Virus record (IMG/VR): IMGVR_UViG_3300042507_005553
Location: 1 to 53,703 of that record
DNA: 53,703 nucleotides
DNA from: a virus
Direction: 5' to 3' (one strand)
This document shows, in pieces, positions 2,906 to 30,776 of the stretch. Under the pieces are notes generated by a model, which was not told the DNA's origin, searched no databases, and was given only the letters and a program-made list of their open reading frames with translations. The translations under genes and the position numbers were made by a program. The stretch's first letter is position 1. Each line of letters starts with the position of its first letter.

Positions 2906-2934
2906 GTTATAAAACATTAAAACGATTTTATAAC
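2906..2934 (-). repeat. Minimal attC-like hairpin, copy identical to 29227-29255
   Basis: A 29-bp inverted repeat, GTTATAAAA arms around CATTAAAACGA. An identical 29-mer occurs at 29227-29255. The same loop CATTAAAACGA is found in the sites at 6394 and 6686. It marks the distal (downstream) end of array 1 and overlaps the R' box of the next site. Confidence 0.65.
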
Positions 2935-3062
2935 AAAAGATATATGAAATGGGAGGTGGGAGTCGAACCCACTATCTCCACTACTCACACTTATACCATA
3001 GTTCTCCTGAGGAATCGAACCTCCTTGATGCTCCCACTTCATATATCTTCAACCGTTATAAG
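2928..3062 (-). repeat. attC-like site 2, with tRNA-like loop
   Basis: R'' box ACTTATAAC (3055-3062) and R' box GTTATAA (2928-2934). The two 19-bp arms (2937-2955 and 3031-3049; AAGATATATGAARTGGGAG) pair with a single mismatch. The about 75-nt loop contains a T-arm-like GTGGGTTCGACTCCCAC hairpin and a second TTCGATT loop, so a tRNA-derived element seems embedded in the site. The stop codon of the neighbouring gene lies in R''. Confidence 0.65.
2953..3036 (-). ncRNA. tRNA-like fragment inside attC-like site 2
   Basis: On the minus strand GTGGGAG can pair with CTCCCAT as an acceptor stem, and GTGGG-TTCGACT-CCCAC forms a perfect T-arm. A second AGGA..TCCT hairpin could serve as D-arm. I cannot fold a normal anticodon arm, so this may be a decayed tRNA or a look-alike rather than a functional tRNA. 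Confidence 0.3.
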
Positions 3063-3292
3063 TCAGTTTGCTCTTTTATCGTTTTTAAGCAATACCAACA
3101 GTAATTAGTTTTAGTTTCGATTTCCCCATGAACATTATCACATGAGCAAACCGAACTTATAACAGGGGGTATAAGAAATAATTTTACTACCTTTTCTGCT
3201 ATATCATCAATGTTACTCAATCCAATAACATACCTATCTTTCTCCATCTCCCAAGCATTGTCTTTTAATATTTGCTTTATTTCTTCTTTCAT
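3056..3292 (-). CDS. Cassette gene: chimeric small zinc-ribbon-like protein (78 aa)
   Basis: 78 residues. The N-terminal 42 (MKEEIKQILKDNAWEMEKDR...VVKLFLIP) are encoded inside the preceding attC-like stem-loop. The cassette proper starts at the GTTATAAG box (3156-3163, codons for V-I-S) and gives the C-terminal half with CSCDN...YCWYC, four cysteines that could bind zinc. The stop codon overlaps the terminal R'' box. So the protein appears to be a fusion created by cassette insertion. Function unknown. Confidence 0.65.
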   Translation of the reverse strand: MKEEIKQILKDNAWEMEKDRYVIGLSNIDDIAEKVVKLFLIPPVISSVCSCDNVHGEIETKTNYCWYCLKTIKEQTDL

Positions 3293-3359
3293 ACTTTTAA
3301 ATTTGTTTAGTGCTATTAATCCGTAAAATTACTTCTCATACCCCCGATACGTTATAAAT
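3156..3359 (-). repeat. attC-like site 3 (long; contains a start codon)
   Basis: R'' ATTTATAAC (3351-3359), right arm GGGGGTATGAGAAGTAATTT, left arm near 3164-3187 (GGGGGTATAAGAAATAATTT on the same reading) and R' GTTATAAG (3156-3163). The arms match over more than 20 bp with two mismatches. The 130-bp interior carries the first 42 codons of the gene ending at 3056. Confidence 0.7.
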
Positions 3360-3366
3360 AATGTTT

Positions 3367-3478
3367 GTTCTTGACAAGGACTCGAACCTTATAATCCACC
3401 TCTTTCGGAAGTTTCACCGCAATCAAATCGGATATAGGACTTACTCACTGCCTGTGTTTACCGTTTCACCACAAGAAC
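3367..3478 (-). tRNA. tRNA-like gene carried as a cassette (112 nt)
   Basis: A 7-bp acceptor stem GTTCTTG/CAAGAAC, a canonical-looking D-arm GTGAAACGGTAAACAC and a T-arm AAGGTTCGAGTCCTT are all present in order on the minus strand. The centre is too long for an ordinary tRNA; one possible anticodon hairpin ACTT-CCGAAAG-AGGT would read GAA (Phe), but U33 is replaced by C. It lies between matching boxes GTTATAAAT (3488-3495 side) and ATTTATAAC (3351), so the whole cassette holds RNA and no ORF. May be non-functional or an unusual class II/intron-containing tRNA. Confidence 0.45.
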
Positions 3479-3487
3479 AAACACATA

Positions 3488-3574
3488 TTTATAACAACAA
3501 ATATAAGAAATAAATTTTTAAATAAAAAATTTTAAAGGTAAAATTTACTTCTCATATTTGCAACCGTTAGTGGC
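3488..3574 (-). repeat. attC-like site 4
   Basis: R'' GCCACTAAC (3566-3574) and R' GTTATAAA (3488-3495). Arms CAAATATGAGAAGTAAATTT and its partner at about 3500-3520 pair over 20 bp with two mismatches. It separates the 3577 gene from the tRNA-like cassette. Confidence 0.7.
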
Positions 3575-3576
3575 AA

Positions 3577-3897
3577 TTATCGGAACGACACCTCTTCGTA
3601 ATAACATTTGGTTATATTTTGAAGACTATTCCACCTATTAAAGTGCTTTTCAATGTGTTCATCTGCAATCCATTTCATTCCAAATTTATCTGTTTCAAAT
3701 TGCTTGTAATGGTCTTTCCATTTTTTCAGCATCTTATTAAACTTGGTGCAGTATTTGGTTGCAGTTGATTTTTTATTGGTAACAAAAACCACAGCACTAT
3801 AATAGTCATCATACGAGCCGCCATAATATCTAACCAAATAATAACTGCCACTAACACGGGTTTGGCAAAATGGCTGTTCAGTAATTCTATCAATCAT
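3577..3897 (-). CDS. Cassette gene: hypothetical protein (106 aa), start inside attC
   Basis: 106 residues. Residues 1-17 (MIDRITEQPFCQTRVSG) are encoded in the attC-like site at 3847-3976; the cassette junction GTTAGTGGC reads V-S-G. The remainder (SYYLVRYYGGSYDDYYSAVVFVTN...) looks beta-rich then helical with many aromatics. The stop lies directly before the terminal TGCCACTAAC box, the reverse complement of the starting GTTAGTGGCA. Unknown function. Confidence 0.65.
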   Translation of the reverse strand: MIDRITEQPFCQTRVSGSYYLVRYYGGSYDDYYSAVVFVTNKKSTATKYCTKFNKMLKKWKDHYKQFETDKFGMKWIADEHIEKHFNRWNSLQNITKCYYEEVSFR

Positions 3898-3976
3898 TCG
3901 TTTTTAATTTTAAAGTTTTGTAATTCTATTTAAGTTCCGGTTCAGCCACTTCGCCAAGCCCGAAAACGTTATATGC
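3847..3976 (-). repeat. attC-like site 5 (contains start codon of 3577 gene)
   Basis: R'' GCATATAAC (3968-3976), spacer GTTTT, arm CGGGCTTGGCGAAGTGGCTG, and partner arm at 3857-3876 just before R' GTTAGTGGC (3847-3855). The arms pair with three mismatches or wobbles. The start codon at 3897 and 17 codons lie within the site. Confidence 0.7.
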
Positions 3977-4046
3977 AATACTACGTTTGTGCTTCGTATT
4001 ATGTTTTGTGGTTATAATCTTTTTGTTTTATTTTTCCCAACTTAAA

Positions 4047-4334
4047 TTAAATACTATAATACACATCATCAAAATTATTAGAATTAGCAATAATTGAGTT
4101 CCATAATTGATAGTAATAAGTATCCTCATTGTTCTGCGTTAATTCTGTATATTTTGCTTGTAGTTTGCCATAAAAAGTAAAACAAACATTAATCTCAGGG
4201 TATTTGTTTTTTACTTTTTTATTTATTTTATTTAATTGTGCTTGTGTAACTTTAAATGAAGATTCATTCTGTTCATTCAAATATTCACGTATAGTAGTTG
4301 CTATAAATTTTCGTAGTTTCATATCTTTCTCCAT
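4047..4334 (-). CDS. Cassette gene: small protein with conserved N-terminal helix tag
   Basis: 95 residues; an internal ATG at 4322 preceded by GGAGAAAG may be the true start, giving MKLRKFIATTIREYLNEQ. This N-terminal amphipathic helix is nearly the same as in the 6765-7184 product (KKFIATTIKEYLNEQ) although the rest differs. The remainder is polar with no recognised motif. The cassette is bounded by GTTATATGCA/TGCATATAAC. Its 3' untranslated end (GTAGTATTG with GAAGCAC) is also shared with the 6765 cassette. Confidence 0.65.
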   Translation of the reverse strand: MEKDMKLRKFIATTIREYLNEQNESSFKVTQAQLNKINKKVKNKYPEINVCFTFYGKLQAKYTELTQNNEDTYYYQLWNSIIANSNNFDDVYYSI

Positions 4335-4377
4335 ATATTTTGCTTTATATATAAATATTCAATTTTTAATTTTCCAC

Positions 4378-4450
4378 CCACAAAAAATAAAACAAAAAGG
4401 TTCAGTTCTTCGTAGGTAGTTTAGTGGTTAATTTCCGCACTGCATATAAC
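4378..4450 (-). repeat. Shared cassette leader, copy 1
   Basis: About 73 bp after the R' box GTTATATGC, including AACCACTAAACTACCTACG and AACTGAACC, is nearly identical to 28367-28440 in array 2. It is the 5' untranslated leader of the 4047 cassette here and precedes the 28090 gene in array 2. This suggests duplication or exchange of cassette leaders between the arrays. Confidence 0.75.
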
Positions 4451-4539
4451 AAGGTGTATAAGAAAGTTTGCCATCAATAGTTTCGGTAATTTGAAAGTTT
4501 CTACAAGCAAACCTTCTCATACACCCAACCGTTAGTGGC
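4442..4539 (-). repeat. attC-like site 6
   Basis: R'' GCCACTAAC (4531-4539), spacer GGTTG, arm GGTGTATGAGAAGGTTTGC, partner arm GCAAACTTTCTTATACACC, then R' GTTATATGC (4442-4450). A 19-bp stem with two mismatches. Same stem sequence as sites 12 and 13. Confidence 0.8.
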
Positions 4540-4542
4540 AAG

Positions 4543-5025
4543 TTAACATACGTTACAAATAAACTGACCACTTTCTAATTCTATATGTTTACAACCTTTT
4601 TGATTTTTTAATTCATCAAGCCATAAATCCCAATTATTTGAAATTAGATTTATAAAATTATCTGTAGAACCTCTTTCTTTGTATCGTTTTAAATATTCTT
4701 CTTTCAGTTCTTTTTTAGGGTAAACTAATATAAATTCTAATCCGTTTTTAACTAAAGCATCTCTTACCTCTTTATGGCTTGATATAAAAATTCTTGAGTA
4801 ACCTTCTGCTATTTTTTCTTTAATATGTTGAATATAATTTTGCGGAAAATTAGATTTATCAAATTTACTACTATCACTATCAGTTGCGAATCCTTGTGGT
4901 ACATATTGAGACCAATCACCATTAGAACAGTAATATGATTTACCAGTACCAGGGAAACCAGCCACTAACAGGTGTTTGGCAATATTGCCTTTTTCGTCTT
5001 CTAAAAACTCTTTTTCTTTATTCAT
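4543..5025 (-). CDS. Cassette gene: P-loop NTPase / nucleotide-kinase-like protein
   Basis: 160 residues. A Walker A motif GFPGTGKS lies at residues 23-30, just after the strand HLLVA. Later features (FISSHKEVRDAL, FILVYPKKELKEEYLKRYKERG) resemble the lid and Walker-B regions of small phage nucleotide or polynucleotide kinases. The first 19 codons lie inside the attC-like site at 4961-5091, and the junction GTTAGTGGC reads L-V-A at the start of the P-loop strand. The stop precedes the TGCCACTAAC box by a few bases. ATP binding is well supported; the substrate is unknown. Confidence 0.75.
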   Translation of the reverse strand: MNKEKEFLEDEKGNIAKHLLVAGFPGTGKSYYCSNGDWSQYVPQGFATDSDSSKFDKSNFPQNYIQHIKEKIAEGYSRIFISSHKEVRDALVKNGLEFILVYPKKELKEEYLKRYKERGSTDNFINLISNNWDLWLDELKNQKGCKHIELESGQFICNVC

Positions 5026-5091
5026 TATATTTGTGTTATCAATTAATATTTGTGAGGGGCAACATCGCCAAGCACCAAAACGTTAGCAAAC
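4961..5091 (-). repeat. attC-like site 7 (contains start codon of 4543 gene)
   Basis: R'' GTTTGCTAAC (5082-5091), spacer GTTTT, arm GGTGCTTGGCGATGTTGCC (5058-5076), partner arm 4971-4989 (GGTGTTTGGCAATATTGCC read as plus strand), then R' GTTAGTGGC (4961-4969). Sixteen of 19 arm positions match. The loop holds the start codon at 5025. Confidence 0.7.
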
Positions 5092-5391
5092 ATTTAACTC
5101 ACGTACTATCTTCATTCTCTGTGCCAATACCCAAGTTCCACCCTGCGATTCGGGTCTATCATAAAGTTCAGTATCTTCTACTTCAACTTCCACCCAAATT
5201 CTGTCTTTAGTTGAAAGATGTGGGGCAATAGGTTTTAATGTGCAATGCCAACCCTTCCTAAAAGCGAAACCTTTAGTTGGATGCGATTCTGCTTCTATCC
5301 ATTTACCAATCGGTATCCTACTTTTCTTATTTATAAATAATGGAGATAAACTACCATCTTTTAACTTTCTAATTAGTTTATATGCTATCAT
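5083..5391 (-). CDS. Cassette gene: conserved hypothetical phage protein (102 aa)
   Basis: 102 residues, MIAYKLIRKLKDGSLSPLF..., with the pattern HPTKGFAFRKGWHC and RPESQGGTWVLA. I recall similar small proteins of unknown function in bacterial and phage genomes. The stop codon TAA lies inside the terminal R'' box GTTTGCTAAC, and the starting box is its exact 10-base complement GTTAGCAAAC. Confidence 0.75.
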   Translation of the reverse strand: MIAYKLIRKLKDGSLSPLFINKKSRIPIGKWIEAESHPTKGFAFRKGWHCTLKPIAPHLSTKDRIWVEVEVEDTELYDRPESQGGTWVLAQRMKIVRELNVC

Positions 5392-5398
5392 TTAAAAC

Positions 5399-5495
5399 GT
5401 TTGCTAACAAGCAATATATGTAATTGCCTATTAAGGTTTATACTAATTTTTAAGTTCGTGCAAGGCAACTACATATATTGCCAGTCGTTATAAGC
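5399..5495 (-). repeat. attC-like site 8
   Basis: R'' GCTTATAAC (5487-5495) and R' GTTAGCAAAC (5399-5408), with arms GGCAATATATGTAGTTGCC-type (5411-5428 and 5464-5481) pairing over about 18 bp with one mismatch. The central loop is AT-rich. Confidence 0.8.
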
Positions 5496-5504
5496 AAATA
5501 AAAA

Positions 5505-5744
5505 TTACTCGCTTTTCGTTTCATCAACAACTTTTTGGTTTCTAATTTCGCCTTCCAACTCCATCATTTCCATAAAGCAATCTCTTAAATGCGAGTGCAT
5601 CCTACCTAACTCAAATCCGTAAACAACATCGTCTTTTTCAGAGTTGCATAACTCTCTAACTAAATCAGCATTTAATTCAAACATTCTTTTGTAATGCTCA
5701 ATTTGTTCTAATTGTTCTTGTGTAATCAAATATTTTCGTTCCAT
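5505..5744 (-). CDS. Cassette gene: small helical protein (79 aa)
   Basis: 79 residues, MERKYLITQEQLEQIEHYKRMFEL..., charged and probably almost fully alpha-helical. Unknown family. The cassette is bounded by GTTATAAGC and GCTTATAAC. Its leader (GTTATAAGCTGTAAAAATTACGGA) is shared with the 29702 cassette in array 2. Confidence 0.7.
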   Translation of the reverse strand: MERKYLITQEQLEQIEHYKRMFELNADLVRELCNSEKDDVVYGFELGRMHSHLRDCFMEMMELEGEIRNQKVVDETKSE

Positions 5745-5761
5745 AATCCGTAATTTTTACA

Positions 5762-5860
5762 GCTTATAACAGCGTATATGTGCAATACGCTAATAAGCAT
5801 TTGTTGTTAATTTAAAGTTTCGTTCTTGCATACTGCACATATACGCAAAACGTTAGGTGC
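5762..5860 (-). repeat. attC-like site 9
   Basis: R'' GCACCTAAC (5852-5860), which fits the integron consensus RYYYAAC; spacer GTTTT; stem GCGTATATGTGCA/TGCACATATACGC (13 bp perfect); one-base spacer; R' GTTATAAGC (5762-5770). One of the clearest sites. Confidence 0.85.
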
Positions 5861-6368
5861 AAGTTTTATTTAAAATTCCCACCGCACCCTTAACATCATC
5901 ATTCGTCAATCCGATTTCACTATTGGTTCTTATAAAATTGTCTTTATGTTCCAATAACATATCACAATCATCATCCAATATCACATAGGTAAAATCCTTG
6001 CCTAATTTCTTTCGTTCCCAATTTTTACCATTATCTGAATGAATATGAGTGTCAACCCATTGTTTTATCTCTACACCTCTTGGGATTGATAAGTGTATTC
6101 CTGTTCCACGTTCAAGCCATTGGTATGCTCTAATTGTAACACCAATCAATTTATCGTTAAACAAAAAACCTTCATTTTCCATGTGTTCTTTCGTTTTTTC
6201 TAAAGTCGCATACCTCCATGAAGAAGATAAAACAATTTTAGCATCCGTTTGGGCAAGTATTTCACCTAACAGCTTTTGTTTTTCGGGGTTTAAAGCCCAT
6301 TGTCCATCTTTCAAATATTCGGGAGTTGCTAAAACTCCATCAATATCTAAGAATATAATTTTTTCCAT
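5853..6368 (-). CDS. Cassette gene: HAD-superfamily phosphatase-like protein
   Basis: 171 residues with HAD motif I IFLDIDGVL (D6, D8), motif II VLSSSWR, and a C-terminal motif ILDDDCDM. The order and the SSSWR signature resemble the HAD domains found in phage and RNA-repair proteins. Probable Mg-dependent phosphohydrolase; the substrate is unknown. The stop TAA is inside the R'' box GCACCTAAC and the leader begins with the complementary GTTAGGTG, so this is a textbook cassette. Confidence 0.8.
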   Translation of the reverse strand: MEKIIFLDIDGVLATPEYLKDGQWALNPEKQKLLGEILAQTDAKIVLSSSWRYATLEKTKEHMENEGFLFNDKLIGVTIRAYQWLERGTGIHLSIPRGVEIKQWVDTHIHSDNGKNWERKKLGKDFTYVILDDDCDMLLEHKDNFIRTNSEIGLTNDDVKGAVGILNKTCT

Positions 6369-6393
6369 CTCTCAAATTTTAAATAAAACCAGA

Positions 6394-6450
6394 CACCTAA
6401 CAGCGTATAAAAAACATTAAAACGATTTTTTATACGCAAAACGTTATAAG
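6394..6450 (-). repeat. attC-like site 10 (short form)
   Basis: 57 bp: R'' CTTATAAC (6443-6450), spacer GTTTT, stem GCGTATAAAAAA / TTTTTTATACGC around the loop ATCGTTTTAATG, single-base spacer, R' GTTAGGTG (6394-6401). It shares its loop with sites 1, 11 and 15. Confidence 0.8.
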
Positions 6451-6464
6451 TAATAAAACAAAAA

Positions 6465-6662
6465 TTATGAATTTATTAGCTCAATTTCTTCTCTGATACA
6501 AGGTAAAATTCTACCATCATCAAGTTTTATCATAATCTTTTCAAATTCACTACCATCTAAACATTTCTGATTATCAATGGAAAGAATTTTACCTTCCAAG
6601 AAATTCCTTTCGTTAGTTATACTTAAACCAACAGTTGTTTTTATTCTATCTTCTTTTTTCAT
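6465..6662 (-). CDS. Cassette gene: hypothetical protein (65 aa)
   Basis: The frame is open from 6710, but those codons run through the attC-like site; the internal ATG at 6662 (MKKEDRIKTTVG) after AAACAAAAATTATACAAT is preferred. The product looks like a small beta-barrel (VGLSITNER, KILSIDNQK, IMIKLDDGRILPC). Unknown function. It lies between boxes GTTATAA and TTATAAC. Confidence 0.6.
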   Translation of the reverse strand: MKKEDRIKTTVGLSITNERNFLEGKILSIDNQKCLDGSEFEKIMIKLDDGRILPCIREEIELINS

Positions 6663-6685
6663 ATTGTATAATTTTTGTTTTACAT

Positions 6686-6743
6686 AGTTATAACAAATGA
6701 TAAACAACATTAAAACGATTGTTTATCATCGGACGTTAGCACC
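6686..6743 (-). repeat. attC-like site 11 (short form)
   Basis: 58 bp: R'' GGTGCTAAC (6735-6743), spacer GTCC, stem GATGATAAACA/TGTTTATCATT around ATCGTTTTAATG, R' GTTATAACT (6686-6694). Confidence 0.8.
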
Positions 6744-6764
6744 AATACTACGAAAGTGCTTCGA

Positions 6765-7184
6765 TTAAGCATTTAATGGTTCATCAAAGATTACATTCCA
6801 ACTATCTAATGGTTGCCAACCGCCACCCATAGTCATTACTTCTAAATCTGATGATGGTACATTCTTGAACGTAATATATTCATCACCTTTATTATTCACT
6901 ATTCTTGGTGATAGTTGATAATCATCAGTCAATTTTGTTCTCAAAATACACATTTTACTAATTCCAGCCTTTGATTTTGCATAGTATTTAGCATAATCTA
7001 AATCATTTGTGAAACTAATTGATGGTTGCTCTTCACCAGTTCTATTTGGTTTCATATATCCATCGTTCTGTATATTCATTGCTTGTCCTTTACCAGTTCC
7101 GTGATAAATATAACCATCATTTTTTACTTGTTCGTTTAAGTATTCTTTGATGGTTGTCGCTATAAATTTCTTCAAATCTTTCAT
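6765..7184 (-). CDS. Cassette gene: ADP-ribosyltransferase-like protein with N-terminal tag
   Basis: 139 residues. The N-terminus MKDLKKFIATTIKEYLNEQ is the tag shared with the 4047 gene. The body YIYHGTGKGQAMNIQ...PSISFTNDLDYAKYYAK resembles the fold start of ART-like or toxin-type proteins: a YHGT strand, then SISFTxD with Y-A repeats. By analogy with phage T4 Alt this could modify host proteins, but the catalytic glutamate is not certain. The cassette is bounded by GTTAGCACC/GGTGCTAAC. Confidence 0.55.
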   Translation of the reverse strand: MKDLKKFIATTIKEYLNEQVKNDGYIYHGTGKGQAMNIQNDGYMKPNRTGEEQPSISFTNDLDYAKYYAKSKAGISKMCILRTKLTDDYQLSPRIVNNKGDEYITFKNVPSSDLEVMTMGGGWQPLDSWNVIFDEPLNA

Positions 7185-7241
7185 AGTTTTCTTTTATATA
7201 TAAATATTACAAATTTAAATTTCTACCAAATAAACCGTACT

Positions 7242-7339
7242 GGTGCTAACAAGGTGTATAAGAAAGTTTGCTATTAGCAGTTGTGGTAATTTGAAAGTTC
7301 AACTAAGCAAACCTTCTCATACACCCAACCGTTAGCAGT
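7242..7339 (-). repeat. attC-like site 12
   Basis: R'' ACTGCTAAC (7331-7339), spacer GGTTG, stem GGTGTATGAGAAGGTTTGC with its partner (same as site 6), R' GTTAGCACC (7242-7250). It closes the first cassette of array 1. Confidence 0.8.
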
Positions 7340-12205: not shown

Positions 12206-12209
12206 CCTA

Positions 12210-14293: not shown

Positions 14294-14315
14294 GTTTTTT
14301 ATTTTTTATTTTTTT

Positions 14316-16239: not shown

Positions 16240-16253
16240 ATTTTTTATTTTTT

Positions 16254-16318: not shown

Positions 16319-16433
16319 TCTTAATAATTAATGTATATTTAAATATTTTACTTAGCCAAATTTATTAAATGAAGCATTCACTATATCGTTATAATGTATT
16401 GGTAATTAATGTATTATAAAAAGAGTTGAGGTG

Positions 16434-18521: not shown

Positions 18522-18785
18522 TTATTTCTTTTTAAATTGTTCAAACCATTCTTTAAATCCTTCAGAAAATTTATCTTCTATATTAGGATTATTACCTTCG
18601 GCATATTCCCCATTCCAACCTTCACCAGTTATTTTAATAGCTGAAAAATATGCTTCTCTTATATCTTCCTCACTATACATTCTATCTGCTTGCCATTTAG
18701 CACCTTCAATAAAAGCATCTTCATTATAAGGTTGCTTGGCCCAATATTTTTCAGCAGCTTCTTCAATTGTTTCTTTATTTTTCAT
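18522..18785 (-). CDS. Small protein sharing the 17282 C-terminal domain (87 aa)
   Basis: 87 residues: ETIEEAAEKYWAKQPY...GAKWQADRMYSEEDIREAYF...FKEWFEQFKKK. Almost the same domain as the C-terminus of the 296-aa neighbour, so one probably derives from the other by duplication. The GAKWQAxRMYSEED pattern is frequent in small Bacteroidota phage ORFs. Unknown function. Driven by promoter-like element 11. Confidence 0.7.
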   Translation of the reverse strand: MKNKETIEEAAEKYWAKQPYNEDAFIEGAKWQADRMYSEEDIREAYFSAIKITGEGWNGEYAEGNNPNIEDKFSEGFKEWFEQFKKK

Positions 18786-18798
18786 TTTATCTGTTTTT

Positions 18799-18863
18799 AT
18801 TATACGTCAATATACGAACATCGTTTTGCTTCGCCAACCTTTTCATATGACGCTGTTGTGACG
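18799..18863 (-). promoter_or_regulatory. Promoter-like element 11
   Basis: 65-bp family member (CGTCACAACAGCGTCATATG, GTTGGCGAAGC, TATATTGACGTATAAT), preceded by the second GGCCCG terminator. Confidence 0.75.
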
Positions 18864-18869
18864 TTTTAC

Positions 18870-19285: not shown

Positions 19286-20842
19286 TTAATTATCTTGATT
19301 ATCTTCTAAATTTGTTTCCTCTTTTTCTTGAGCATCTGATTCCATAAGAATAAATCTTTTACTTTTTAATTTATAAGCTTCGTAGTATTCTAATTTTTCT
19401 ACTCTTAATACAATCCCTTCTTCAGGAACTTTATTTGCACACATATAGCAATCTTTTTCGTTATAGGATTCTTCTAAGTGTTCTAAAAATTCTACTCTCC
19501 AAGTTTCTACATCTTTATAAGATAGCATTTCTTCATTTGTAACAATTTTTGCTTTACCTCTATCATAATAATTAGAAGCTTTACCATAATAAATAAAAGT
19601 ATCTTTATATAATAATCCTACTTTTTCACAATATTCTTCTATTTGTTTATCAGTAAGATATATTACCTTACCATCAGAATTAACTACAGATATTTTATAA
19701 ACATAAAATTTGTGTCTTGGTTTTTGTAAAGATTTAAGGTTATTAAAATCTTCTAAAGTAGCACCATGATTTTTTATTAAATTATCAATAGTAGGAACAT
19801 ACTTCCAATTTATATCAAAAAATAAATTATTATCTTGTAAATATTTTAGTTTTTCTTTTTTATTTATAGAATCCCACAATGTTTGATAACTTCTTTTAGA
19901 AGTTTCTTCTGAAGGAGAACAACCGTAATCATATTTACCTTGAATAGGACCTCCTCCAGGAATAAAGCCCAATACTTCACCATATAGTGTCCAATTTTTA
20001 GGAATTAAATGGCCTATTTCTTTAGCTACCACTCCCCAAATATCATCTCCATAATAACCTACACCAGTTTCTTCATTTAAATATTGATTTTTTATTACTT
20101 TTCTTGAACTGTAAACAATATCATATTGAGTATCAATTACTTGTATTCCTAATTTTTTGGCAACTCTTTCATACCACTTTAAATTTTTCTTTACTAATAC
20201 ATTTCCTACTACAATAGAAGTTCCATGTTTTTTGTAGTGGATTCCAATAATATCATCAGGATTAATTTTATGTATATTTTTCCTTAAATTATCAGTATCA
20301 TTATGAAAATAAAATTGATTTTCTACTAATCTATCGATTTTTTTAGATTGTTTAGGAGCACTTCCTCCAGGATTACCATTTCTACAAGGAACAAAATACT
20401 TTTCACAAATAGTAATATCATTAATAATATTAAATTCATCTCCAACTTTTAATTCTCTTTCATAATCTTTACCCCACATTTCTAAGTCTATACCCATATT
20501 TAAACTTTCTAAAGGCATTAATATACCATCACTGATAATACCTTTTAGTTTAATAGCTTTTACCCTAAATTGTTTATGTGATATATAACCTTTTACTTTA
20601 TTTCTGTTCATTTCTGCATCTGTAAGTAAATCATTATATTTACAGTAATCTACATTTAATTTAGTACCAGATACAAAATAAAGCATAATATCACCTATTT
20701 TAACATTTTTAGAAACAACTACATCATTTCCATTTACTAAACATCCTTGTATTTTATCAGCTCCTTCAATAGGATATAAATGTTCTATTTTTATTACTGA
20801 ACATGCATAGTTTTCACTACCTTCTTTAATTTTTAATTTCAT
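19286..20842 (-). CDS. RNA ligase, DraRnl/Rnl5-like (518 aa)
   Basis: N-terminal OB-like part SVIKIEHLYPIEGADKIQG and a nucleotidyltransferase domain. Motif I is YKKHGTS (lysine nucleophile at about residue 206), motif IIIa around LYGEVLG, motif IV EEGIVLRVE, motif V YKLKSKRF. The order and the extra N-terminal OB domain resemble the Deinococcus RNA ligase family. Probably ligates or repairs cleaved RNA, perhaps tRNAs attacked by host defences. No overlap with neighbours; own promoter not obvious. Confidence 0.8.
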   Translation of the reverse strand: MKLKIKEGSENYACSVIKIEHLYPIEGADKIQGCLVNGNDVVVSKNVKIGDIMLYFVSGTKLNVDYCKYNDLLTDAEMNRNKVKGYISHKQFRVKAIKLKGIISDGILMPLESLNMGIDLEMWGKDYERELKVGDEFNIINDITICEKYFVPCRNGNPGGSAPKQSKKIDRLVENQFYFHNDTDNLRKNIHKINPDDIIGIHYKKHGTSIVVGNVLVKKNLKWYERVAKKLGIQVIDTQYDIVYSSRKVIKNQYLNEETGVGYYGDDIWGVVAKEIGHLIPKNWTLYGEVLGFIPGGGPIQGKYDYGCSPSEETSKRSYQTLWDSINKKEKLKYLQDNNLFFDINWKYVPTIDNLIKNHGATLEDFNNLKSLQKPRHKFYVYKISVVNSDGKVIYLTDKQIEEYCEKVGLLYKDTFIYYGKASNYYDRGKAKIVTNEEMLSYKDVETWRVEFLEHLEESYNEKDCYMCANKVPEEGIVLRVEKLEYYEAYKLKSKRFILMESDAQEKEETNLEDNQDN

Positions 20843-21095: not shown

Positions 21096-21832
21096 TTCTC
21101 CCCTTCATAAAATTTAATTTTGATTTCTAAAATATTCCCATTACTACTCAATGTACCAAACTTTCCATCAGTAACCACACTCCCATTACTAAAAATAGTA
21201 TCATACTTTGATAGTTGTAAAACCCCAGCATTGATAATATCTTTACAATTATGGATATGACCAAATAAACACATTTTAGGTTGTATTTTAATTACTCTTT
21301 TCATCAAAGCACTACAACCACATCTTTCCAAATCACCATTTTTATTATACGAAAAATCAAGTATTCCTTTAGGTGGTCCATGTACTACTATAATATCAGT
21401 ATCATCAGGAATATGTTCCCACACTCTACTAATCTTATCTCTTGCCTTCATAAAATGCCAATTACCAAAAGTAGGCGTAAATGGTGAACCCCATATTTTA
21501 ATACCTTCTACTATAACATAATCATTTTCAAGATATATTATACCTAAATCATTAAATGTTTCCTTATCAATTAATCCTTTTTCAATAGCATACTCATGAT
21601 TACCAGCAACAAATATTTTATACTTAATATTTAATGAATAAAACCAAGTTAAAAACTTTCTCACTTCAGTTTCATTATCATATAGACCTGTAAGCAAAGT
21701 ACAATCACCTGAGAATATTACCATATCTATCCCTTTAGGGACTTGTAATAAGTCGTGGTAGGTGTGTGTATCGCTTATATGCCATATTTTCATAATGGCT
21801 TCTCTCGGACTATTTATGTTTATTTTATTCAT
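21092..21832 (-). CDS. Calcineurin-like metallophosphoesterase
   Basis: Start at 21832 (MNKININSPREAIMKIWHISDTH); the earlier ATG lies in promoter-like element 12. All motifs of the family are present: ISDTH (D-x-H), IFSGDCT (GD), VAGNHEYA (GNHE), VVHGPP, and LFGHIH. Metal-dependent phosphodiesterase or phosphatase acting in the cytoplasm; substrate unknown. It resembles a class of phage-encoded phosphoesterases found beside ligases. Confidence 0.85.
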   Translation of the reverse strand: MNKININSPREAIMKIWHISDTHTYHDLLQVPKGIDMVIFSGDCTLLTGLYDNETEVRKFLTWFYSLNIKYKIFVAGNHEYAIEKGLIDKETFNDLGIIYLENDYVIVEGIKIWGSPFTPTFGNWHFMKARDKISRVWEHIPDDTDIIVVHGPPKGILDFSYNKNGDLERCGCSALMKRVIKIQPKMCLFGHIHNCKDIINAGVLQLSKYDTIFSNGSVVTDGKFGTLSSNGNILEIKIKFYEGEN

Positions 21833-21847
21833 AATATTTATTTCTTT

Positions 21848-21912
21848 ATTATACGTCAATATACGAACACCGTTTTGATTTGCCAAATTTCTCGCATGAC
21901 GCTTACATGACG
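21848..21912 (-). promoter_or_regulatory. Promoter-like element 12
   Basis: 65-bp family member (ACGTCATGTAAGCGTCATGCG, TTTGGC, TATATTGACGTATAAT). Drives the phosphoesterase gene. Confidence 0.7.
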
Positions 21913-21919
21913 TTTTATA

Positions 21920-22646: not shown

Positions 22647-23726
22647 TTATTCGTAATCTTCCCTCGCAATTTTTATAACAAATCCAAATCTCGGTATATG
22701 ATCTGGAGTTAGGTTGAAATATTTAACTGTTGCTGTTTTTCCGATTAGTTGGTGTTTTGTATTCCACATTTTTGTACATTCTTCCCAATTAAATTTAGGA
22801 CTAGCTTTAAAGCGTTTACCATCTCTATTTTCAAATACAAATGCTCCTACCATCCCACTTTTATTCCCAATTCCTTCTTCAATATCTAAAATTGTATATT
22901 CTTCATCAATAAATGACTTGTGCTTTAAAAGCGATTTACTACGTTTATTCTCATATTTGCTATTTAAACGAACCATTTGTCCTTCATAGTTGTTAACAAC
23001 ATAGTTCTCATAATAAGCCATTAGTTCCGTTTCGTTATTAGCAATGCGGGTTTCAACTAATTTACAACATTTTGGTAAAATTAATTCAAGTAATATTTCA
23101 TACCTATCAGAAAACACACCACTACAACTTGGTAAGTCATAAATGTGATATTCAATAGATTTAGCACTATCTTCTAAATCTTGTGGTGTTGGTTTTGTTT
23201 TCTTTACTAACGAACATATAGCATTAAAGTCGGTTGCAAATTTATCAGCATATAACTCTCCATCAAATATAAGATTTGGATTAATTTCAAATAATGGTTT
23301 TAACGCTTCAAATATGTGTGGGGCTGAAATTATTGGTTTGCCTGTTCTTGACCACATTCCGTCTCGTTTCACCAAACAGCGAATACCATCTAGTTTCGGT
23401 TGACTATAAAGGGGATATTTGATTTTGTGCTTTTCCTTATTGAAATCGTGAGCGAGCATCGGTTCAAAAAATGTCTCATTATCTATATCGGAAACATTTT
23501 CGAATGAACCGCTTTCCATTTTCTTTCGATGAATTGCTGTGGCTTCTTTTATTGCTTGCTCTTCAGCAGTACAATACGTTTTGGCATTACATACTGTTGG
23601 AAGAGATGTAGTTTTAACTCCATCTGAAAATCCGGTTACAGTATAATACTTGTTTCCTTCAATGTGAATTGTGAATGTATTTATCTTGCCGTTTACCGAC
23701 CTAGAATACAGTGTTGATAATTTCAT
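22647..23726 (-). CDS. ATP-dependent DNA ligase
   Basis: 359 residues. Motif I YSQPKLDGIRC (adenylated lysine K at about 131), motif III LIFDGELYADKF, motif IV YEGQMVRL, motif V LLKHKSF, and an OB domain (GMVGAFVFENRDGKRFKASPKF, GKTATVKYFNLT). T7/T4-like adenylating ligase for joining nicks. Driven by promoter-like element 13 with an AAAGGTTATG leader. A homing endonuclease follows it. Confidence 0.88.
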   Translation of the reverse strand: MKLSTLYSRSVNGKINTFTIHIEGNKYYTVTGFSDGVKTTSLPTVCNAKTYCTAEEQAIKEATAIHRKKMESGSFENVSDIDNETFFEPMLAHDFNKEKHKIKYPLYSQPKLDGIRCLVKRDGMWSRTGKPIISAPHIFEALKPLFEINPNLIFDGELYADKFATDFNAICSLVKKTKPTPQDLEDSAKSIEYHIYDLPSCSGVFSDRYEILLELILPKCCKLVETRIANNETELMAYYENYVVNNYEGQMVRLNSKYENKRSKSLLKHKSFIDEEYTILDIEEGIGNKSGMVGAFVFENRDGKRFKASPKFNWEECTKMWNTKHQLIGKTATVKYFNLTPDHIPRFGFVIKIAREDYE

Positions 23727-23746
23727 AACCTTTATTTTTTATTTTA

Positions 23747-23811
23747 ATTATACATCAATATACGAACGTTATTTGGATTTGCCAAATTTTTCATATGACG
23801 CTGTGGTGACG
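23747..23811 (-). promoter_or_regulatory. Promoter-like element 13
   Basis: 65-bp family member (CGTCACCACAGCGTCATATG, TTTGGC, GTTCGTATATTGATGTATAAT), upstream of the DNA ligase. Confidence 0.75.
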
Positions 23812-23814
23812 CCT

Positions 23815-24078
23815 TTACATTAAGAATTTATTTGCTATTTTTACAATTATATTCTCTTCTTCCATAGATAATAACATTTTGTTATATGGTCTTCTTAATT
23901 TTCTTAGTGCTTCATAATATTCATATTCACATATTATTTGTGATTCAAATATATTTTCTCTTTCTTTTAAAATAAACTCTAGTATATTATTTACTATTAA
24001 TTCATTTTTATCATGGGATAATTCAAAGTTACCATATCTTCTCCAAATTTCTTCCTTTAATTCTTCAGGTGTTTTCAT
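23815..24078 (-). CDS. Hypothetical helical protein (87 aa)
   Basis: 87 residues, MKTPEELKEEIWRRYGNFELSHDKNELIV..., mainly helical. Contains EIWRRYG and YEYYEALRKLRR. No family recognised. Start of a run of small genes reaching 26.5 kb, with its 3' end touching promoter-like element 13. Confidence 0.6.
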   Translation of the reverse strand: MKTPEELKEEIWRRYGNFELSHDKNELIVNNILEFILKERENIFESQIICEYEYYEALRKLRRPYNKMLLSMEEENIIVKIANKFLM

Positions 24079-28329: not shown

Positions 28330-28366
28330 ATTATTTTATTTAAATTTTTCAAATTTATTTTATCCA

Positions 28367-28440
28367 ACCCACAAAAATAAAACAAAAAGGTTCAGTTCTT
28401 CGTAGGTAGTTTAGTGGTTAATTTCCGCACTGCATATAAC
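28367..28440 (-). repeat. Shared cassette leader, copy 2
   Basis: Near-identical to 4378-4450, including the R' box GTTATATGC and AACCACTAAACTACCTACG. The plus-strand reading GTAGTTTAGTGGTTAA resembles a tRNA D-arm, possibly by chance. Confidence 0.75.
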
Positions 28441-28531
28441 AAGGTGTATAAGAAAGTTTGCTATCAGCAGTAGTGGTTAATTTGAAAGTTCATCAAAGCA
28501 AACCTTCTCATACACCCAAACGTTAGCAAAC
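28432..28531 (-). repeat. attC-like site 13
   Basis: R'' GTTTGCTAAC (28522-28531), 19-bp stem GGTGTATGAGAAGGTTTGC with partner (as in sites 6 and 12), R' GTTATATGC (28432-28440). Confidence 0.8.
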
Positions 28532-28532
28532 A

Positions 28533-28730
28533 TTACCTTTTGACCTCGTTCAAATAACGTTTATAGGCATTGCTAATCTGTTCCTCTTTCATTCCTGAGT
28601 ACCATATTACAAAGTCAAAAGGTAACGACCTTTCAGTTTTGCTAACATCAGATAAACGCAATTTTAATTTTTCGTTCTCGTCTGTTAGTCGCCTTATTTT
28701 GTCTTGTAAAAAATTGTCAAATCCTTCCAT
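28533..28730 (-). CDS. Cassette gene: coiled-coil-like protein (65 aa), start inside attC
   Basis: MEGFDNFLQDKIRRLTDENEKLKLRLSDVSKTERSLPFD.... A leucine-rich heptad stretch lies in the first 30 residues, which are encoded inside the attC-like site at 28638-28780; the junction GTTAGCAAA reads V-S-K. The stop is 1 bp before the GTTTGCTAAC box. A chimera of attC loop and cassette. Confidence 0.6.
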   Translation of the reverse strand: MEGFDNFLQDKIRRLTDENEKLKLRLSDVSKTERSLPFDFVIWYSGMKEEQISNAYKRYLNEVKR

Positions 28731-28780
28731 ATATTTGTTATTAAAAATTAAAACTTCGCTTATCTGTGTCCGTTATACAC
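28638..28780 (-). repeat. attC-like site 14 (contains start codon of 28533 gene)
   Basis: R'' GTGTATAAC (28772-28780), arm CAGATAAGCGAAGTTTTAAT, partner arm CAGATAAACGCAATTTTAAT read from the plus strand near 28648-28672, R' GTTAGCAAA (28638-28646). About 21 of 25 arm positions match. Confidence 0.7.
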
Positions 28781-28784
28781 AATA

Positions 28785-29177
28785 CTAAAGACCATCTATC
28801 GCTTCGACTTTTATTGTTCCTAAAGTGCCACTTGGTAACGATGATGAAGAATAAACATTATTCCAATTATTATCTATTGCAAGTTGATGTAAAATAGTTC
28901 TGTAAATTTGATATGTATTTCCAATAAATTCAGAACCATTATACCCTTTACTTCCATTGTCAGGTAAATCAGGTAATAATATTCTTTTCACTTGTTTTAA
29001 AAGACCTTCAACTTCATCACGCCTTTTCATTTGTTCATCAAACGGTAAACCACGCAACATTTGTTCAATGGTATATCTCATTTCCGATTGACCTCCAGCA
29101 AATCTTGAAACATCTTCAAGACAAAAAGAAACTAATCTCATTTGTTCCTCTGATAATTCTATTTTATATTTTCTCAT
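28785..29177 (-). CDS. Cassette gene: hypothetical protein (130 aa)
   Basis: Start placed at 29177 (MRKYKIELSEEQMRLVSFC); an earlier ATG at 29216 would read through the site junction. Helical protein with FCLEDVSRFAGGQSEMRYT, DEVEGLLKQVKRILLPDL. I have seen similar sequences in small Bacteroidota phage proteins. The 3' box GTGTATAAC has only a degenerate 5' partner (GTTGTACGC). Confidence 0.65.
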   Translation of the reverse strand: MRKYKIELSEEQMRLVSFCLEDVSRFAGGQSEMRYTIEQMLRGLPFDEQMKRRDEVEGLLKQVKRILLPDLPDNGSKGYNGSEFIGNTYQIYRTILHQLAIDNNWNNVYSSSSLPSGTLGTIKVEAIDGL

Positions 29178-29226
29178 ATTCCAATTTTTAAATTTGTGGT
29201 TAGGCGTACAACACATATACCCAACC

Positions 29227-29255
29227 GTTATAAAACATTAAAACGATTTTATAAC
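29227..29255 (-). repeat. Minimal attC-like hairpin, identical to 2906-2934
   Basis: The same 29-bp sequence (GTTATAAAA arms, loop CATTAAAACGA) as in array 1. In both arrays it sits directly next to a tRNA-like-loop attC site. Confidence 0.75.
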
Positions 29256-29373
29256 AAAGAATATAAGAAATAGGGGTGTGGAATGTCATACCACTAAGCA
29301 ATCGCTATCAACCTTCTAGCTTACACGAAACCATCTATTTACACTACTTCTTATATTCTCAACCGTTAGGTGC
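29247..29373 (-). repeat. attC-like site 16
   Basis: R'' GCACCTAAC (29365-29373), arm AGAATATAAGAAGTAG, partner arm CTATTTCTTATATTCT, R' GTTATAAAA (29247-29255). The about 75-nt loop has GTGG...CCAC pairs that weakly recall a T-arm, as in site 2. Confidence 0.75.
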
Positions 29374-29377
29374 AATG

Positions 29378-29566
29378 CTATGACTGCAACTCCTTACGCA
29401 AATCTTCTTCTATTAATTTGAATGTTCTCATTTTAATATCACACTTCATTGCATTTTCATAATTACCAGCTTCTTTGTATTCATCAACACTTTTTTGAAG
29501 CATTTCAACTCTACCAACTATTCGGCAAAGCATATTTTCCATTCGTTCTCTTAATGTTTGTTTCAT
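29378..29566 (-). CDS. Cassette gene: helical protein (62 aa)
   Basis: Start at 29566 (MKQTLRERMENML) after AAATAAAG; the frame upstream includes the cassette junction. EDEYKEAGNYENAMKCDIKMRTFKLIEEDLRKELQS-like helices. Cassette boxes GTTAGGTGCA and TGCACCTAAC pair over 10 bases. Unknown function. Confidence 0.65.
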   Translation of the reverse strand: MKQTLRERMENMLCRIVGRVEMLQKSVDEYKEAGNYENAMKCDIKMRTFKLIEEDLRKELQS

Positions 29567-29592
29567 CTTTATTTTAGTTTGTGAGAAGCACT

Positions 29593-29690
29593 GCACCTAA
29601 CAGCACATAGGCAATAGTTGCCAGAAACTTCTCGGTTAATAATTTAATTTATCGTAGGCAACCGTCGCCTATCTGCAAAACGTTATAAGC
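29593..29690 (-). repeat. attC-like site 17
   Basis: R'' GCTTATAAC (29682-29690), spacer GTTTT, arms GGCAACTATTGCCTATGTG-like pairing 29605-29620 with 29656-29672 over 16 bp with mismatches, R' GTTAGGTGC (29593-29601). Confidence 0.75.
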
Positions 29691-29701
29691 AATAAAAATT
29701 A

Positions 29702-29938
29702 CTACTGCTCACGTTCAAGTTTCTCGTTAATCGCTTCGGCAATAAACTTTCCTACCTTGTCTTGAAATTCGGTTGCCTTATCCATGTCTAATTTAAACAA
29801 GTTTTGCAGTTCTCCCCATCCTCTTACATCAGCAACATGATGTAAATAGTCGGCATCCTTAGTTTTTTCGATAGCCCATATTTGAGTGCCTTCGCTATCA
29901 TATTGCACTCCGCTTTTAAACCATTCTTTTATTGTCAT
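29702..29938 (-). CDS. Cassette gene: conserved small protein (78 aa)
   Basis: MTIKEWFKSGVQYDSEGTQIW...VADVRGWGELQNLFK...FQDKVGKFIAEAINEKL, a pattern I recognise from small Bacteroidota phage and mobile-element ORFs of unknown function. Cassette boxes GTTATAAGC/GCTTATAAC. Its leader and flanking bases closely match the 5505 cassette. Confidence 0.7.
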   Translation of the reverse strand: MTIKEWFKSGVQYDSEGTQIWAIEKTKDADYLHHVADVRGWGELQNLFKLDMDKATEFQDKVGKFIAEAINEKLEREQ

Positions 29939-29954
29939 GTCCGTAATTTTTACA

Positions 29955-30054
29955 GCTTATAACAGCGTATATACAAGATACGCCTACAAGCATTTGTTTA
30001 TAATTTAAAGTTTATCGTTTGGCGTACCTCGTATATACGCAAAACGTTATAACC
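29955..30054 (-). repeat. attC-like site 18
   Basis: R'' GGTTATAAC (30046-30054), spacer GTTTT, stem GCGTATATACGAGGTACGCC with its partner 29965-29985 (GCGTATATACAAGATACGCC), R' GTTATAAGC (29955-29963). Closely resembles site 9. Confidence 0.85.
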
Positions 30055-30448
30055 AATTAGACAAACGACACCCCATTTGAAGTAATATATGTTTTTTATC
30101 TTTTTCTGAAATTTCTGTTTCCTCTATTATTTCTGTTAATGAAAGTTCGAGTATAAGTTTAATGTTTGCTATTTCAAACTTATGTTCAGTTTTAGAGAAA
30201 ACAGAAAAATCATCTGTTAATAAATCTCTACAAACAACTTGATGCTCATTAACATCTATTACTTCAAAACAATTACGTCTGTTCGTTGTAATTTTATTTC
30301 CCTTTTCAAATATATTTTCCATAACTAACTGGTTATAACAAAGTGTATAAGCAATATAATCCAAAAATGGACTACTATCTTCTGCATAATCAAACTGCTT
30401 TGCATATTCAGTAGCCATCTTTTCTATTTGTTCTTTTGTTATGTCCAT
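30047..30448 (-). CDS. First cassette gene of array 2: chimeric hypothetical protein (133 aa)
   Basis: The box GTTATAACC (30331-30339), complementary to its own terminal GGTTATAAC, lies in the coding sequence (residues about 37-39, C-Y-N). So the first about 37 residues (MDITKEQIEKMATEYAKQFDYAED...) come from sequence upstream of the cassette and the rest (MENIFEKGNKITTNRRNCFEVIDVNEHQVVC...) from the cassette. An alternative start at 30321 would give the cassette-only form. Unknown function; driven by promoter-like element 14. Confidence 0.6.
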   Translation of the reverse strand: MDITKEQIEKMATEYAKQFDYAEDSSPFLDYIAYTLCYNQLVMENIFEKGNKITTNRRNCFEVIDVNEHQVVCRDLLTDDFSVFSKTEHKFEIANIKLILELSLTEIIEETEISEKDKKHILLQMGCRLSNWL

Positions 30449-30510
30449 TTTTTTATTTTTAGTTTGGTATTAATTCGCCACAACGACAACAAAGCCGCAG
30501 GACGTTATAC
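30331..30510 (-). repeat. attC-like or attI-like junction 19 at head of array 2
   Basis: R' GTTATAACC (30331-30339) and a GTATAAC box (30504-30510) that is part of promoter-like element 14. The left arm CTTATACACTTT is related to sites 6/12/13, but the right side (TGCGGCTTTGTTGTCG) does not pair with it. Either a hybrid site or a recombination entry point next to the promoter. Confidence 0.45.
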
Positions 30511-30568
30511 GTCAATATACGAACATCGTTTTGCTTTGCCAACCTTTTTATATGACGCAGTTGTGACA
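30504..30568 (-). promoter_or_regulatory. Promoter-like element 14, drives array 2
   Basis: 65-bp family member (ATGTCACAACTGCGTCATAT, GTTGGC, TATATTGACGTATAAC). The final TATAAT has become TATAAC, which joins it to the array head. Confidence 0.7.
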
Positions 30569-30570
30569 TT

Positions 30571-30678
30571 TTAAATATTACCTTGTAATATTGCGACTAT
30601 CCATAATATAGCGATTAAACCACCAATTATTGATATTACTAATAACGAACCTACGATAATTTTTAATGTATTTTTCAT
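30571..30678 (-). CDS. Small membrane peptide (35 aa)
   Basis: MKNTLKIIVGSLLVISIIGGLIAILWIVAIL..., a single long hydrophobic segment. It sits between promoter-like elements 14 and 15, with the AAAGGTTATG leader. Likely a membrane peptide; role unknown. Confidence 0.6.
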   Translation of the reverse strand: MKNTLKIIVGSLLVISIIGGLIAILWIVAILQGNI

Positions 30679-30693
30679 AACCTTTATTTCTTT

Positions 30694-30758
30694 ATTATAC
30701 GTCAATATACGAACCCTGTTCCGATTCGCCAAACTTTTCATATGACGCAGTTATGACG
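30694..30758 (-). promoter_or_regulatory. Promoter-like element 15
   Basis: 65-bp family member with an extra upstream half-site (CGTTACAACAGCGTCATAAC up to about 30769). Upstream of the membrane peptide. Confidence 0.75.
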
Positions 30759-30776
30759 CTGTTGTAACGCTTTATA

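What the first reader, a model, noticed from the sequence alone, without database searches (positions are those of the whole stretch)
28638..28780. Same chimeric-start pattern in array 2 (28533 and 30047 genes)
The 28533 gene starts inside site 14 (arms CAGATAAGCG / CAGATAAACG) and crosses GTTAGCAAA as codons V-S-K. The 30047 gene crosses its box GTTATAACC at codons 37-39. Independent recurrence in the second array argues against coincidence.
Basis: partly seen in the sequence, partly recalled or inferred. Interest (0 to 1): 0.78.

Follow-up and report, generated by a model that had tools for sequence, protein, structure and literature searches.

The report
Genes starting inside phage cassette sites
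In this phage, and in many related ones, small mobile genes begin inside the DNA hairpin that moves them, so the hairpin also encodes the first 13-50 amino acids of the protein; the same start modules recur on dozens of unrelated genes, which makes the mobile site part of the protein-building system.

Summary
The window is a 53.7-kb piece of a large Bacteroidota-type phage with two integron-like cassette arrays: 16 attC-type sites, all on the minus strand. The 28533 observation is confirmed. Its ATG (28730) lies in the terminal loop of attC 28778-28640, and the frame runs through the right arm and across R' (GTT=Val) into a start-less ORF. Three array-1 genes do the same. The 30047 half is not an example: its own ATG (30322) follows the box, and homologues start there. 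Across about 500 related attC sites, in-loop starts in frame with start-less downstream ORFs are far above chance (independent set: odds ratio 84, p=1e-12). They have Bacteroidota-type initiation context, and the leader peptides look under purifying selection. Leaders are modules; one leader family sits on 31 payloads. R' is a module seam, but not the mobile boundary of recent events: isolated Polaribacter phages Freya_1-10 and 11 cassette pairs show [attC body + payload] moving as one unit cut at R'' (AAC), next to a tail-end tyrosine recombinase lacking the IntI-specific insert. So the start codon belongs to the gene's own cassette. Phage CALINs are known; this polarity, the translated loops and the tail recombinase were not found in papers searched.

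The parts
28640..28778 (-). attC-type site of the 28533 cassette: R'' GTATAAC (28778-28772), spacer GGACA, arm CAGATAAGCG, loop with A-rich initiation region and ATG, arm CGTTTATCTG, AT, R' GTTAGCA (28646-28640)
   Evidence: fold z -2.6; same site family in L002 2015-2166
28533..28730 (-). ORF P0001, 65 aa: leader MEGFDNFLQDKIRRLTDENEKLKLRLSD (28730-28647), seam V at R', payload SKTERSLPFDFVIWYSGMKEEQISNAYKRYLNEVKR
   Evidence: leader found with another payload in L002 2062-2466; payload has no ATG before +54
28522..28646 (-). 28533 payload from R' (GTTAGCA) to its own matching R'' (TGCTAAC 28528-28522)
   Evidence: R' and R'' complementary as in the other cassettes bounded by two intact sites
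30047..30322 (-). real cassette gene of '30047' (91 aa, starts at Met43 of the long ORF)
   Evidence: homologues L001, L003, L004, LR756500 start or align here
30333..30354 (-). right half of a truncated attC (GCTTATACACTTT + R' GTTATAA); left half missing, so the ORF runs on from 30448 by chance
   Evidence: compare intact site in L003 1170-1256 and L004 4942-5028
28434..30052 (-). array 2: attC sites (R''-R') 30052-29957, 29688-29595, 29371-29249, 28778-28640, 28528-28434
2928..7337 (-). array 1: attC sites 7337-7244, 6741-6688, 6449-6395, 5858-5764, 5493-5402, 5088-4963, 4537-4444, 3974-3849, 3572-3489, 3357-3157, 3061-2928
4543..5025 (-). leader MNKEKEFLEDEKGNIAKH | LLVAGFPGTGKS... P-loop protein starting in attC 5088-4963 (phase 2)
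   Evidence: phrog_4182 E=2.7e-56; homologues in 224 phage records, best listed ones aligning from residues 12-20; Eps7 native Met 4 codons before the aligned start
3577..3897 (-). leader MIDRITEQPFCQTR | VSGSYYLVRYYGG... starting in attC 3974-3849 (phase 0)
   Evidence: same leader on N6/N4 DNA methylase in L012 and isolated Flavobacterium phages tooticki/mumin
3056..3292 (-). 43-aa leader | VISSVCSCDNVHGE... starting in attC 3357-3157 (phase 0)

Best explanation
Gene 28533 belongs to a phage-borne integron-type cassette whose recombination site lies at the 5' side of the gene. The mobile unit is [AA|C - attC body - R' - payload - R'' ..TAA]. It is cut at the R'' AAC and moved by a tyrosine recombinase that in relatives sits at the downstream end of the array (boundary shown comparatively; enzyme inferred from position; not present in this contig). 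In a large class of these sites the loop of the attC hairpin carries an A-rich Bacteroidota-type translation-initiation region, an ATG and a 13-50-codon leader. The leader's frame runs through the right arm and R' into a downstream ORF that has no start of its own. The phase is usually GTT=Val (phase 0) and less often xxG-TTA (phase 2, which can complete a lipoprotein signal peptide). Translation therefore starts inside the recombination site (inferred). Over longer times attC bodies with leaders have been re-paired with unrelated payloads at R', so R' is a module seam where N-termini were swapped (shown by comparison; the mechanism of re-pairing, whether rare cutting at R' or cassette genesis, is inferred).
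For: (1) 16 attC-like hairpins in the window; each intact cassette's R' is complementary to its own R''. (2) Start-less payloads and in-frame leaders go together: exploratory set OR 19, p=4e-12; independent set OR 84, p=1e-12, with 0 of 13 in the control phase 1; start-less vs own-start x leader OR 15.5, p=5e-26; phase-0 leaders 57 vs 30 expected from shuffled loops, maximum 45 in 200. (3) Leader ATG context: A 0.70 at -3, 0.68 at -6, 0.66-0.76 at -11 to -14, matching the F. johnsoniae determinants (PMC6847099). (4) Leader pN/pS 0.45 in frame vs 0.91 and 1.15 out of frame and 1.28 in the 5' region. (5) Modules: a 31-member leader family on 31 payloads; bodies >=90% identical with unrelated payloads in 235 of 249 pairs, identity ending about 5 nt past the G of R'. 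(6) Payload co-inherits with the upstream body 13:0. (7) Freya isolates: five different cassettes abut the same AAC|ACCCC site 49 nt before the integrase ATG; Freya_1 and Freya_10 identical over 1400/1400 nt from the integrase ATG; Freya_9 to Freya_10 is a +307-bp unit with leader-attC + payload. (8) 53 of 63 recombinase loci have the array directly upstream on the same strand, 1 downstream, 1 on the opposite strand. (9) Six lipobox payloads whose signal peptide spans R'.
Against: No protein or ribosome data. The 28533 payload itself has no homologue, so its own coding status rests on its leader (57% identical in L002, with a 21-nt in-frame length difference) and on the general pattern. The window has no recombinase and is a fragment. 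The attC finder is my own; IntegronFinder was not available. The pN/pS pairs were chosen by in-frame similarity, which biases the ratio downward. One payload pair (window cassette at 7244 vs L042) shares the downstream rather than the upstream body, but that body is a ubiquitous short one. Some leader attC carry payloads that also have an early ATG (59 cases).
Confidence: 0.82

Rival explanations
1. One reading: the start codon is borrowed from the upstream cassette's attC, so each cassette insertion at R' creates a new chimeric protein (classical integron polarity, crossover G|TT at R').
For: Leaders and payloads are freely combined in evolution, with the seam at R'; L070/L071 have the same payload (99.5% DNA) with different leaders.
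Against: Payload co-inherits with its upstream body 13:0 and not with the downstream body in other loci, apart from one ubiquitous short body. Freya insertions are cut at the R'' AAC and bring leader and payload together.
Confidence: 0.12
2. Artefact of ORF calling in AT-rich DNA: the long ORFs merely run back through R', and real starts lie inside the payload.
For: True for 30047 and for phase-1 run-throughs such as MLFIICY.
Against: 97 payloads with no ATG within 45 nt have an in-frame leader. Methylase and P-loop payloads of 140-250 codons have no plausible internal start. There is a phase bias and a control phase without effect. Leaders show purifying selection and initiation context.
Confidence: 0.05
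3. The leader is only a carrier: the attC loop supplies ATG and initiation region, and the leader peptide has no function beyond tolerating the hairpin's codons (a narrower version of the best explanation, compatible with it).
For: Leaders are short, mostly polar and variable in length; the last codons are dictated by the arm and R'.
Against: pN/pS 0.45 against about 1 out of frame; signal-peptide leaders paired with lipobox payloads (p=0.0017, only six cases).
Confidence: 0.4

Closest known systems
CALINs (attC clusters lacking an integron integrase) in phages, Qi et al. 2023 (PMC9892861)
   Same: Phage-borne attC arrays, including a flavobacterial phage (Polaribacter P12002L) with DNA methyltransferase cassettes; [quoted passage not shown]
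   Different: No mention of start codons in attC; here the attC lies 5' of its gene, its loop is apparently translated, and in relatives a tail-end recombinase is present.
Classical and sedentary chromosomal integrons (intI, attI, attC cassettes)
   Same: R''/L''...L'/R' hairpins, R'-R'' complementarity within each cassette, near-identical attC bodies on unrelated genes, growth next to an integrase-proximal site.
   Different: Genes point toward the recombinase; cassettes are cut at the gene-side R'' so attC precedes the gene; the recombinase lacks the IntI-specific insert (I2 helix region, PMC7790495).
Fused gene cassettes and attI1 ORF-11 in class 1 integrons (reviewed in PMC8876359; PMC4670013)
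   Same: A gene can use upstream sequence of the integron for translation.
   Different: Those arise by loss of attC or from attI; here intact attC loops carry leaders in a conserved phase across many cassettes.
Archaeal-type XerA / integron-integrase-like tyrosine recombinases (NF040815)
   Same: Best profile match of the array-tail recombinase (194 bits).
   Different: Below the family cut-off (220); sits at the end of attC arrays in most loci examined (53 of 63).

Membership tests
Integron attC sites / CALIN | R'' (..AAC) and R' (GTT..) core boxes flanking a stem of paired L boxes, at least 2 sites in tandem with same orientation | tested here: met
   16 sites in two arrays, same strand
Integron attC sites / CALIN | R' at cassette start complementary to R'' at cassette end (same circular cassette) | tested here: met
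   All cassettes bounded by two intact sites in the window
Integron attC sites / CALIN | Recognition by an integron integrase | not testable with these tools
   Other phage attC were recombined by IntI1 in PMC9892861; not these
Complete integron | Integron integrase IntI (TIGR02249 above cut-off, with the IntI-specific insert) | tested here: not met
   No tyrosine recombinase in the window; tail recombinase of relatives 159 bits vs cut-off 265, insert absent
Complete integron | Gene cassettes with attC 3' of the gene, crossover at R' G|TT | tested here: not met
   Freya junctions at the R'' AAC; payload linked to the upstream body 13:0
Complete integron | Array grows next to an integrase-proximal site | tested here: met
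   Freya variants share AAC|ACCCC before the integrase; shown in relatives, not in the window
Fused cassettes | Loss of part or all of the intervening attC | tested here: not met
   attC 28778-28640 is intact; for 30047 a half attC is indeed lost

The most novel reading that the evidence does not exclude
A separate lineage of phage integrons: cassettes are [attC then gene], cut at R'' beside a tail-end tyrosine recombinase without the IntI insert, and many attC loops are translated N-terminal modules (start signal plus leader or signal peptide) in a fixed reading phase, so that the recombination site works like an exon boundary for protein assembly.
Probability: 0.6. Interest if true: 0.86.

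Novelty: new variant of a known kind. Interest (0 to 1): 0.76.

Why it matters
In known integrons attC is treated as an untranslated, gene-distal site that tends to block translation. Here the site carries start codon, initiation context and N-terminus, with reading phase conserved across the seam; that is a natural system for swapping protein N-termini, including signal peptides that span the site. It also points to a common phage integron architecture (tail recombinase, reversed polarity) that an IntI-based search would miss, and it has cultivable representatives (Polaribacter phage Freya series, Flavobacterium Muminvirus phages) in which both the translation and the recombination claims can be tested directly. 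Gene callers would misplace starts in such cassettes, and the question of how attC sites become attached to new genes becomes testable.

Tried and rejected
Direct phage-database search with P0001 gave no hit. Pfam and PHROGs gave nothing useful for 28533. The tail recombinase was first hoped to be IntI; the profile and alignment show that it is not. Chromosomal IntI loci of Bacteroidota (105 of 396 genomes over cut-off) were fetched, but their flanks held no attC of this type with my finder. A pattern scan of 395 genomes of the class of G001 gave 10 scattered hits without arrays. The 'diff/same' co-inheritance cases were same-locus duplicates of one cassette and were discarded. Readings such as MLFIICY... 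(phase 1) and MINNRFNVVYH... in the ubiquitous short attC were treated as noise.

Full report
WHAT THE WINDOW IS. The window is the whole of one IMG/VR virus record, 28% GC. Nearly all substantial ORFs lie on the minus strand. It encodes a DNA polymerase, clamp loader, DNA and RNA ligases, a GroEL-type chaperonin and glycosyltransferases, so it is most likely a fragment of a large lytic phage. Related cassette arrays fall in other viral contigs and, rarely, in Bacteroidota MAGs; the host is inferred to be a Bacteroidota bacterium. No tyrosine recombinase was found in it.

THE ARRAYS. A search for R''(TAAC)-spacer-arm...arm-spacer-R'(GTTA) finds 16 strong sites, all on the minus strand, in two arrays (7337-2928 and 30052-28434). 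The remaining hits in the window score 18-19, near the threshold, and shuffled sequence gives 2-7 threshold hits per strand. Every cassette bounded by two intact sites has an R' complementary to its own R'' (for example GTTAGCA...TGCTAAC for 28533), which is the signature of integron cassettes. Spacers are asymmetric, about 5 nt after R'' and 1-2 nt before R'.

THE OBSERVATION. The 28533 ORF starts in the loop of attC 28778-28640 and crosses R' as D-V-S-K. From R' on, its frame has no ATG until +54. The 30047 ORF crosses R' at codons 37-39, but only because an upstream frame runs through a truncated half attC. The same cassette in L003 and L004 sits behind a complete attC and starts at ATGGAAAATATATTTG, that is Met43; the 88-aa homologue in the 462-kb phage LR756500 starts at the equivalent Met outside any attC array. 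So one of the two cases is real. In array 1 there are three further cases: 5025..4543, 3897..3577 and 3292..3056.

LEADERS AND PAYLOADS ARE MODULES. L002 has the 28533 leader (MFGYEDELQ...ENEKLKLRLSD, 57% identical, length differing by exactly seven codons) fused in frame to a different 134-aa ORF. The 3577 leader MIDRITEQPFCQTR precedes an unrelated N6/N4 methylase in L012 and in the isolated Flavobacterium phages tooticki6-1 and mumin6-4, where the annotated CDS already starts in the attC loop. The 4543 payload is a P-loop protein (phrog_4182) whose homologues occur in 224 phage records; the best listed alignments begin at residues 12-20, mostly 20, that is at the seam, and Eps7's own Met lies four codons before the aligned start. 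Pfam domains of methylase and DUF551 payloads lie wholly downstream of R'. One leader family (..IKRFNESEENLNISD|V) occurs on 31 different payloads, others on 10 and 7. The reverse also occurs: L070 and L071 share a payload at 99.5% DNA identity but have different leaders.

MORE THAN CHANCE. In 123 long-loop attC not used as search seeds, phase-0 leaders number 57, against 30 in shuffled loops (maximum 45 of 200). Leader and downstream open frame co-occur in phase 0 (OR 19, p=4e-12) and phase 2 (OR 9.7, p=5e-7), not significantly in phase 1. An independent set fetched by the recombinase, not by attC sequence, repeats this (phase 0: leader+open 31, leader only 7, open only 2, neither 38; OR 84, p=1e-12; phase 1: 0 of 13 leaders with an open frame). 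Start-less payloads have a leader in 97 of 115 cases, payloads with an early ATG in 59 of 229 (OR 15.5; this pooled set includes seed sites). Six payloads with a lipobox have leaders that supply the rest of the signal peptide, five of them in phase 2, where R' reads as hydrophobic residues (small numbers, and two of the six are the same cassette).

ARE THEY TRANSLATED? The loop ATG has the initiation context measured in Flavobacterium johnsoniae: A at -3, -6 and -11 to -14 (PMC6847099). Leader codons outside the arm have pN/pS 0.45 (0.39-0.58 in resampling with each leader used once), against 0.91 and 1.15 in the other frames and 1.28 in the 5' region. Pairs were picked by in-frame similarity, so the absolute value is biased; the contrast between frames is the useful part. 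There is no direct expression evidence.

WHERE IS THE CASSETTE BOUNDARY? For homologous payloads in different contigs the upstream attC body is shared while the downstream body differs in 10 pairs (plus 3 where the downstream body is intermediate), and the reverse occurs in none apart from one intermediate case with a ubiquitous short body. In 11 of the 13 the sequence before R'' is unrelated. The isolated phages Freya_1-10 give a direct before/after comparison. Their sequence is identical for 49-54 nt upstream of the integrase ATG, up to an AAC, beyond which five different cassettes are found. Freya_10 differs from Freya_9 by a 307-bp unit that begins after the AAC of the previous cassette and contains a leader attC (MKNTRENDKK...QLRIGG|VSNRRELLE), its payload and TGCTAAC. 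The mobile unit is therefore attC body + payload, cut within AAC. Bodies are nonetheless found with unrelated payloads on both sides in 235 of 249 pairs of >=90% identical bodies, with identity ending about 5 nt past the G of R' and 2 nt before TAAC, so re-pairing at R' also happens, on a slower scale and by an unknown route.

THE RECOMBINASE OF RELATIVES. A 265-aa tyrosine recombinase follows the array on the same strand in 53 of 63 testable loci (last R' 36-1022 nt away in all but one); one locus has an array downstream and one on the other strand; shuffled upstream sequence gives none. It keeps the tyrosine-recombinase motifs but lacks the IntI-specific insert and scores below the IntI and XerA cut-offs. 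The I2 helix is considered the innovation that allowed single-strand attC recombination (PMC7790495), so its absence here is worth testing. The window itself has no such gene.

LITERATURE. Phage CALINs are known, including a Polaribacter phage with methyltransferase cassettes and attC of divergent directions (PMC9892861). Ten full-text searches found no description of start codons or conserved leaders in attC loops, or of this tail recombinase; a review describes fused cassettes and leader peptides in cassette 5' UTRs. Subscription papers and preprints were not searchable.

VERDICT. Observation half confirmed (28533 yes, 30047 no). Interpretation partly supported: modular N-termini with the seam at R', but the start codon belongs to the gene's own cassette. 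New variant of a known kind, with a phage-integron architecture that may deserve its own class.

Noticed in passing
L047 7351-6557 and 17+ other viral loci (L004, L007, L044, L053, L064, L068, L071, L072, L081, L111, L116, L123; L184-L262): 265-aa tyrosine recombinase without the IntI insert directly at the downstream end of attC arrays; strong array association in the reciprocal search.
   Followed up: partly
window 2283-2383, 7682-7782, 12109-12209, 14284-14384, 16222-16322, 18767-18867, 21816-21916, 23715-23815, 30472-30762 and others: A repeated element of about 85-100 nt (GTCATATGA...TTCGTATATTGACGTATAAT), 13-15 copies, mostly just upstream of gene starts; imperfect stem-loop plus TATAAT. 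Reminiscent (from memory) of the promoter stem-loops of T4-like phages.
   Followed up: no
window 29219-29254 and 2898-2933: Gene-less mini-cassette TTATAAAATCGTTTTAATGTTTTATAAC between R' and R'', in both arrays.
   Followed up: no
window 4353-4506 and 28343-28496: The two arrays share an 84% identical cassette-start region, including the attC right half and the R' GTTATATGCAGTGCGG.
   Followed up: no
L120 6332-5844: A leader+payload ORF is fused in frame into the C-terminal half of the tail recombinase, apparently by a deletion at the array end.
   Followed up: no
LR745206 (L038) around 1468-1510: A P-loop homologue outside any array has an N-terminus (MMKINKFNEHKNT) resembling the common leader motif (..HIQSFNEHQENLN), so leaders may derive from a widespread phage N-terminal motif.
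   Followed up: no
Bacteroidota genomes (search of 396): 105 of 396 genomes carry a TIGR02249 integron integrase above cut-off; the 20 flanks fetched had no attC of this phage type with my finder.
   Followed up: partly
window 13006-13081: tRNA-like gene with a four-base anticodon call (gtga) from ARAGORN, supported by Rfam tRNA.
   Followed up: no
window 5853-6368: Array-1 cassette encoding a HAD_SAK_2 domain (RNA repair 'Swiss army knife' HAD), E=5e-23; the phage also has an RNA ligase (19286-20842).
   Followed up: no
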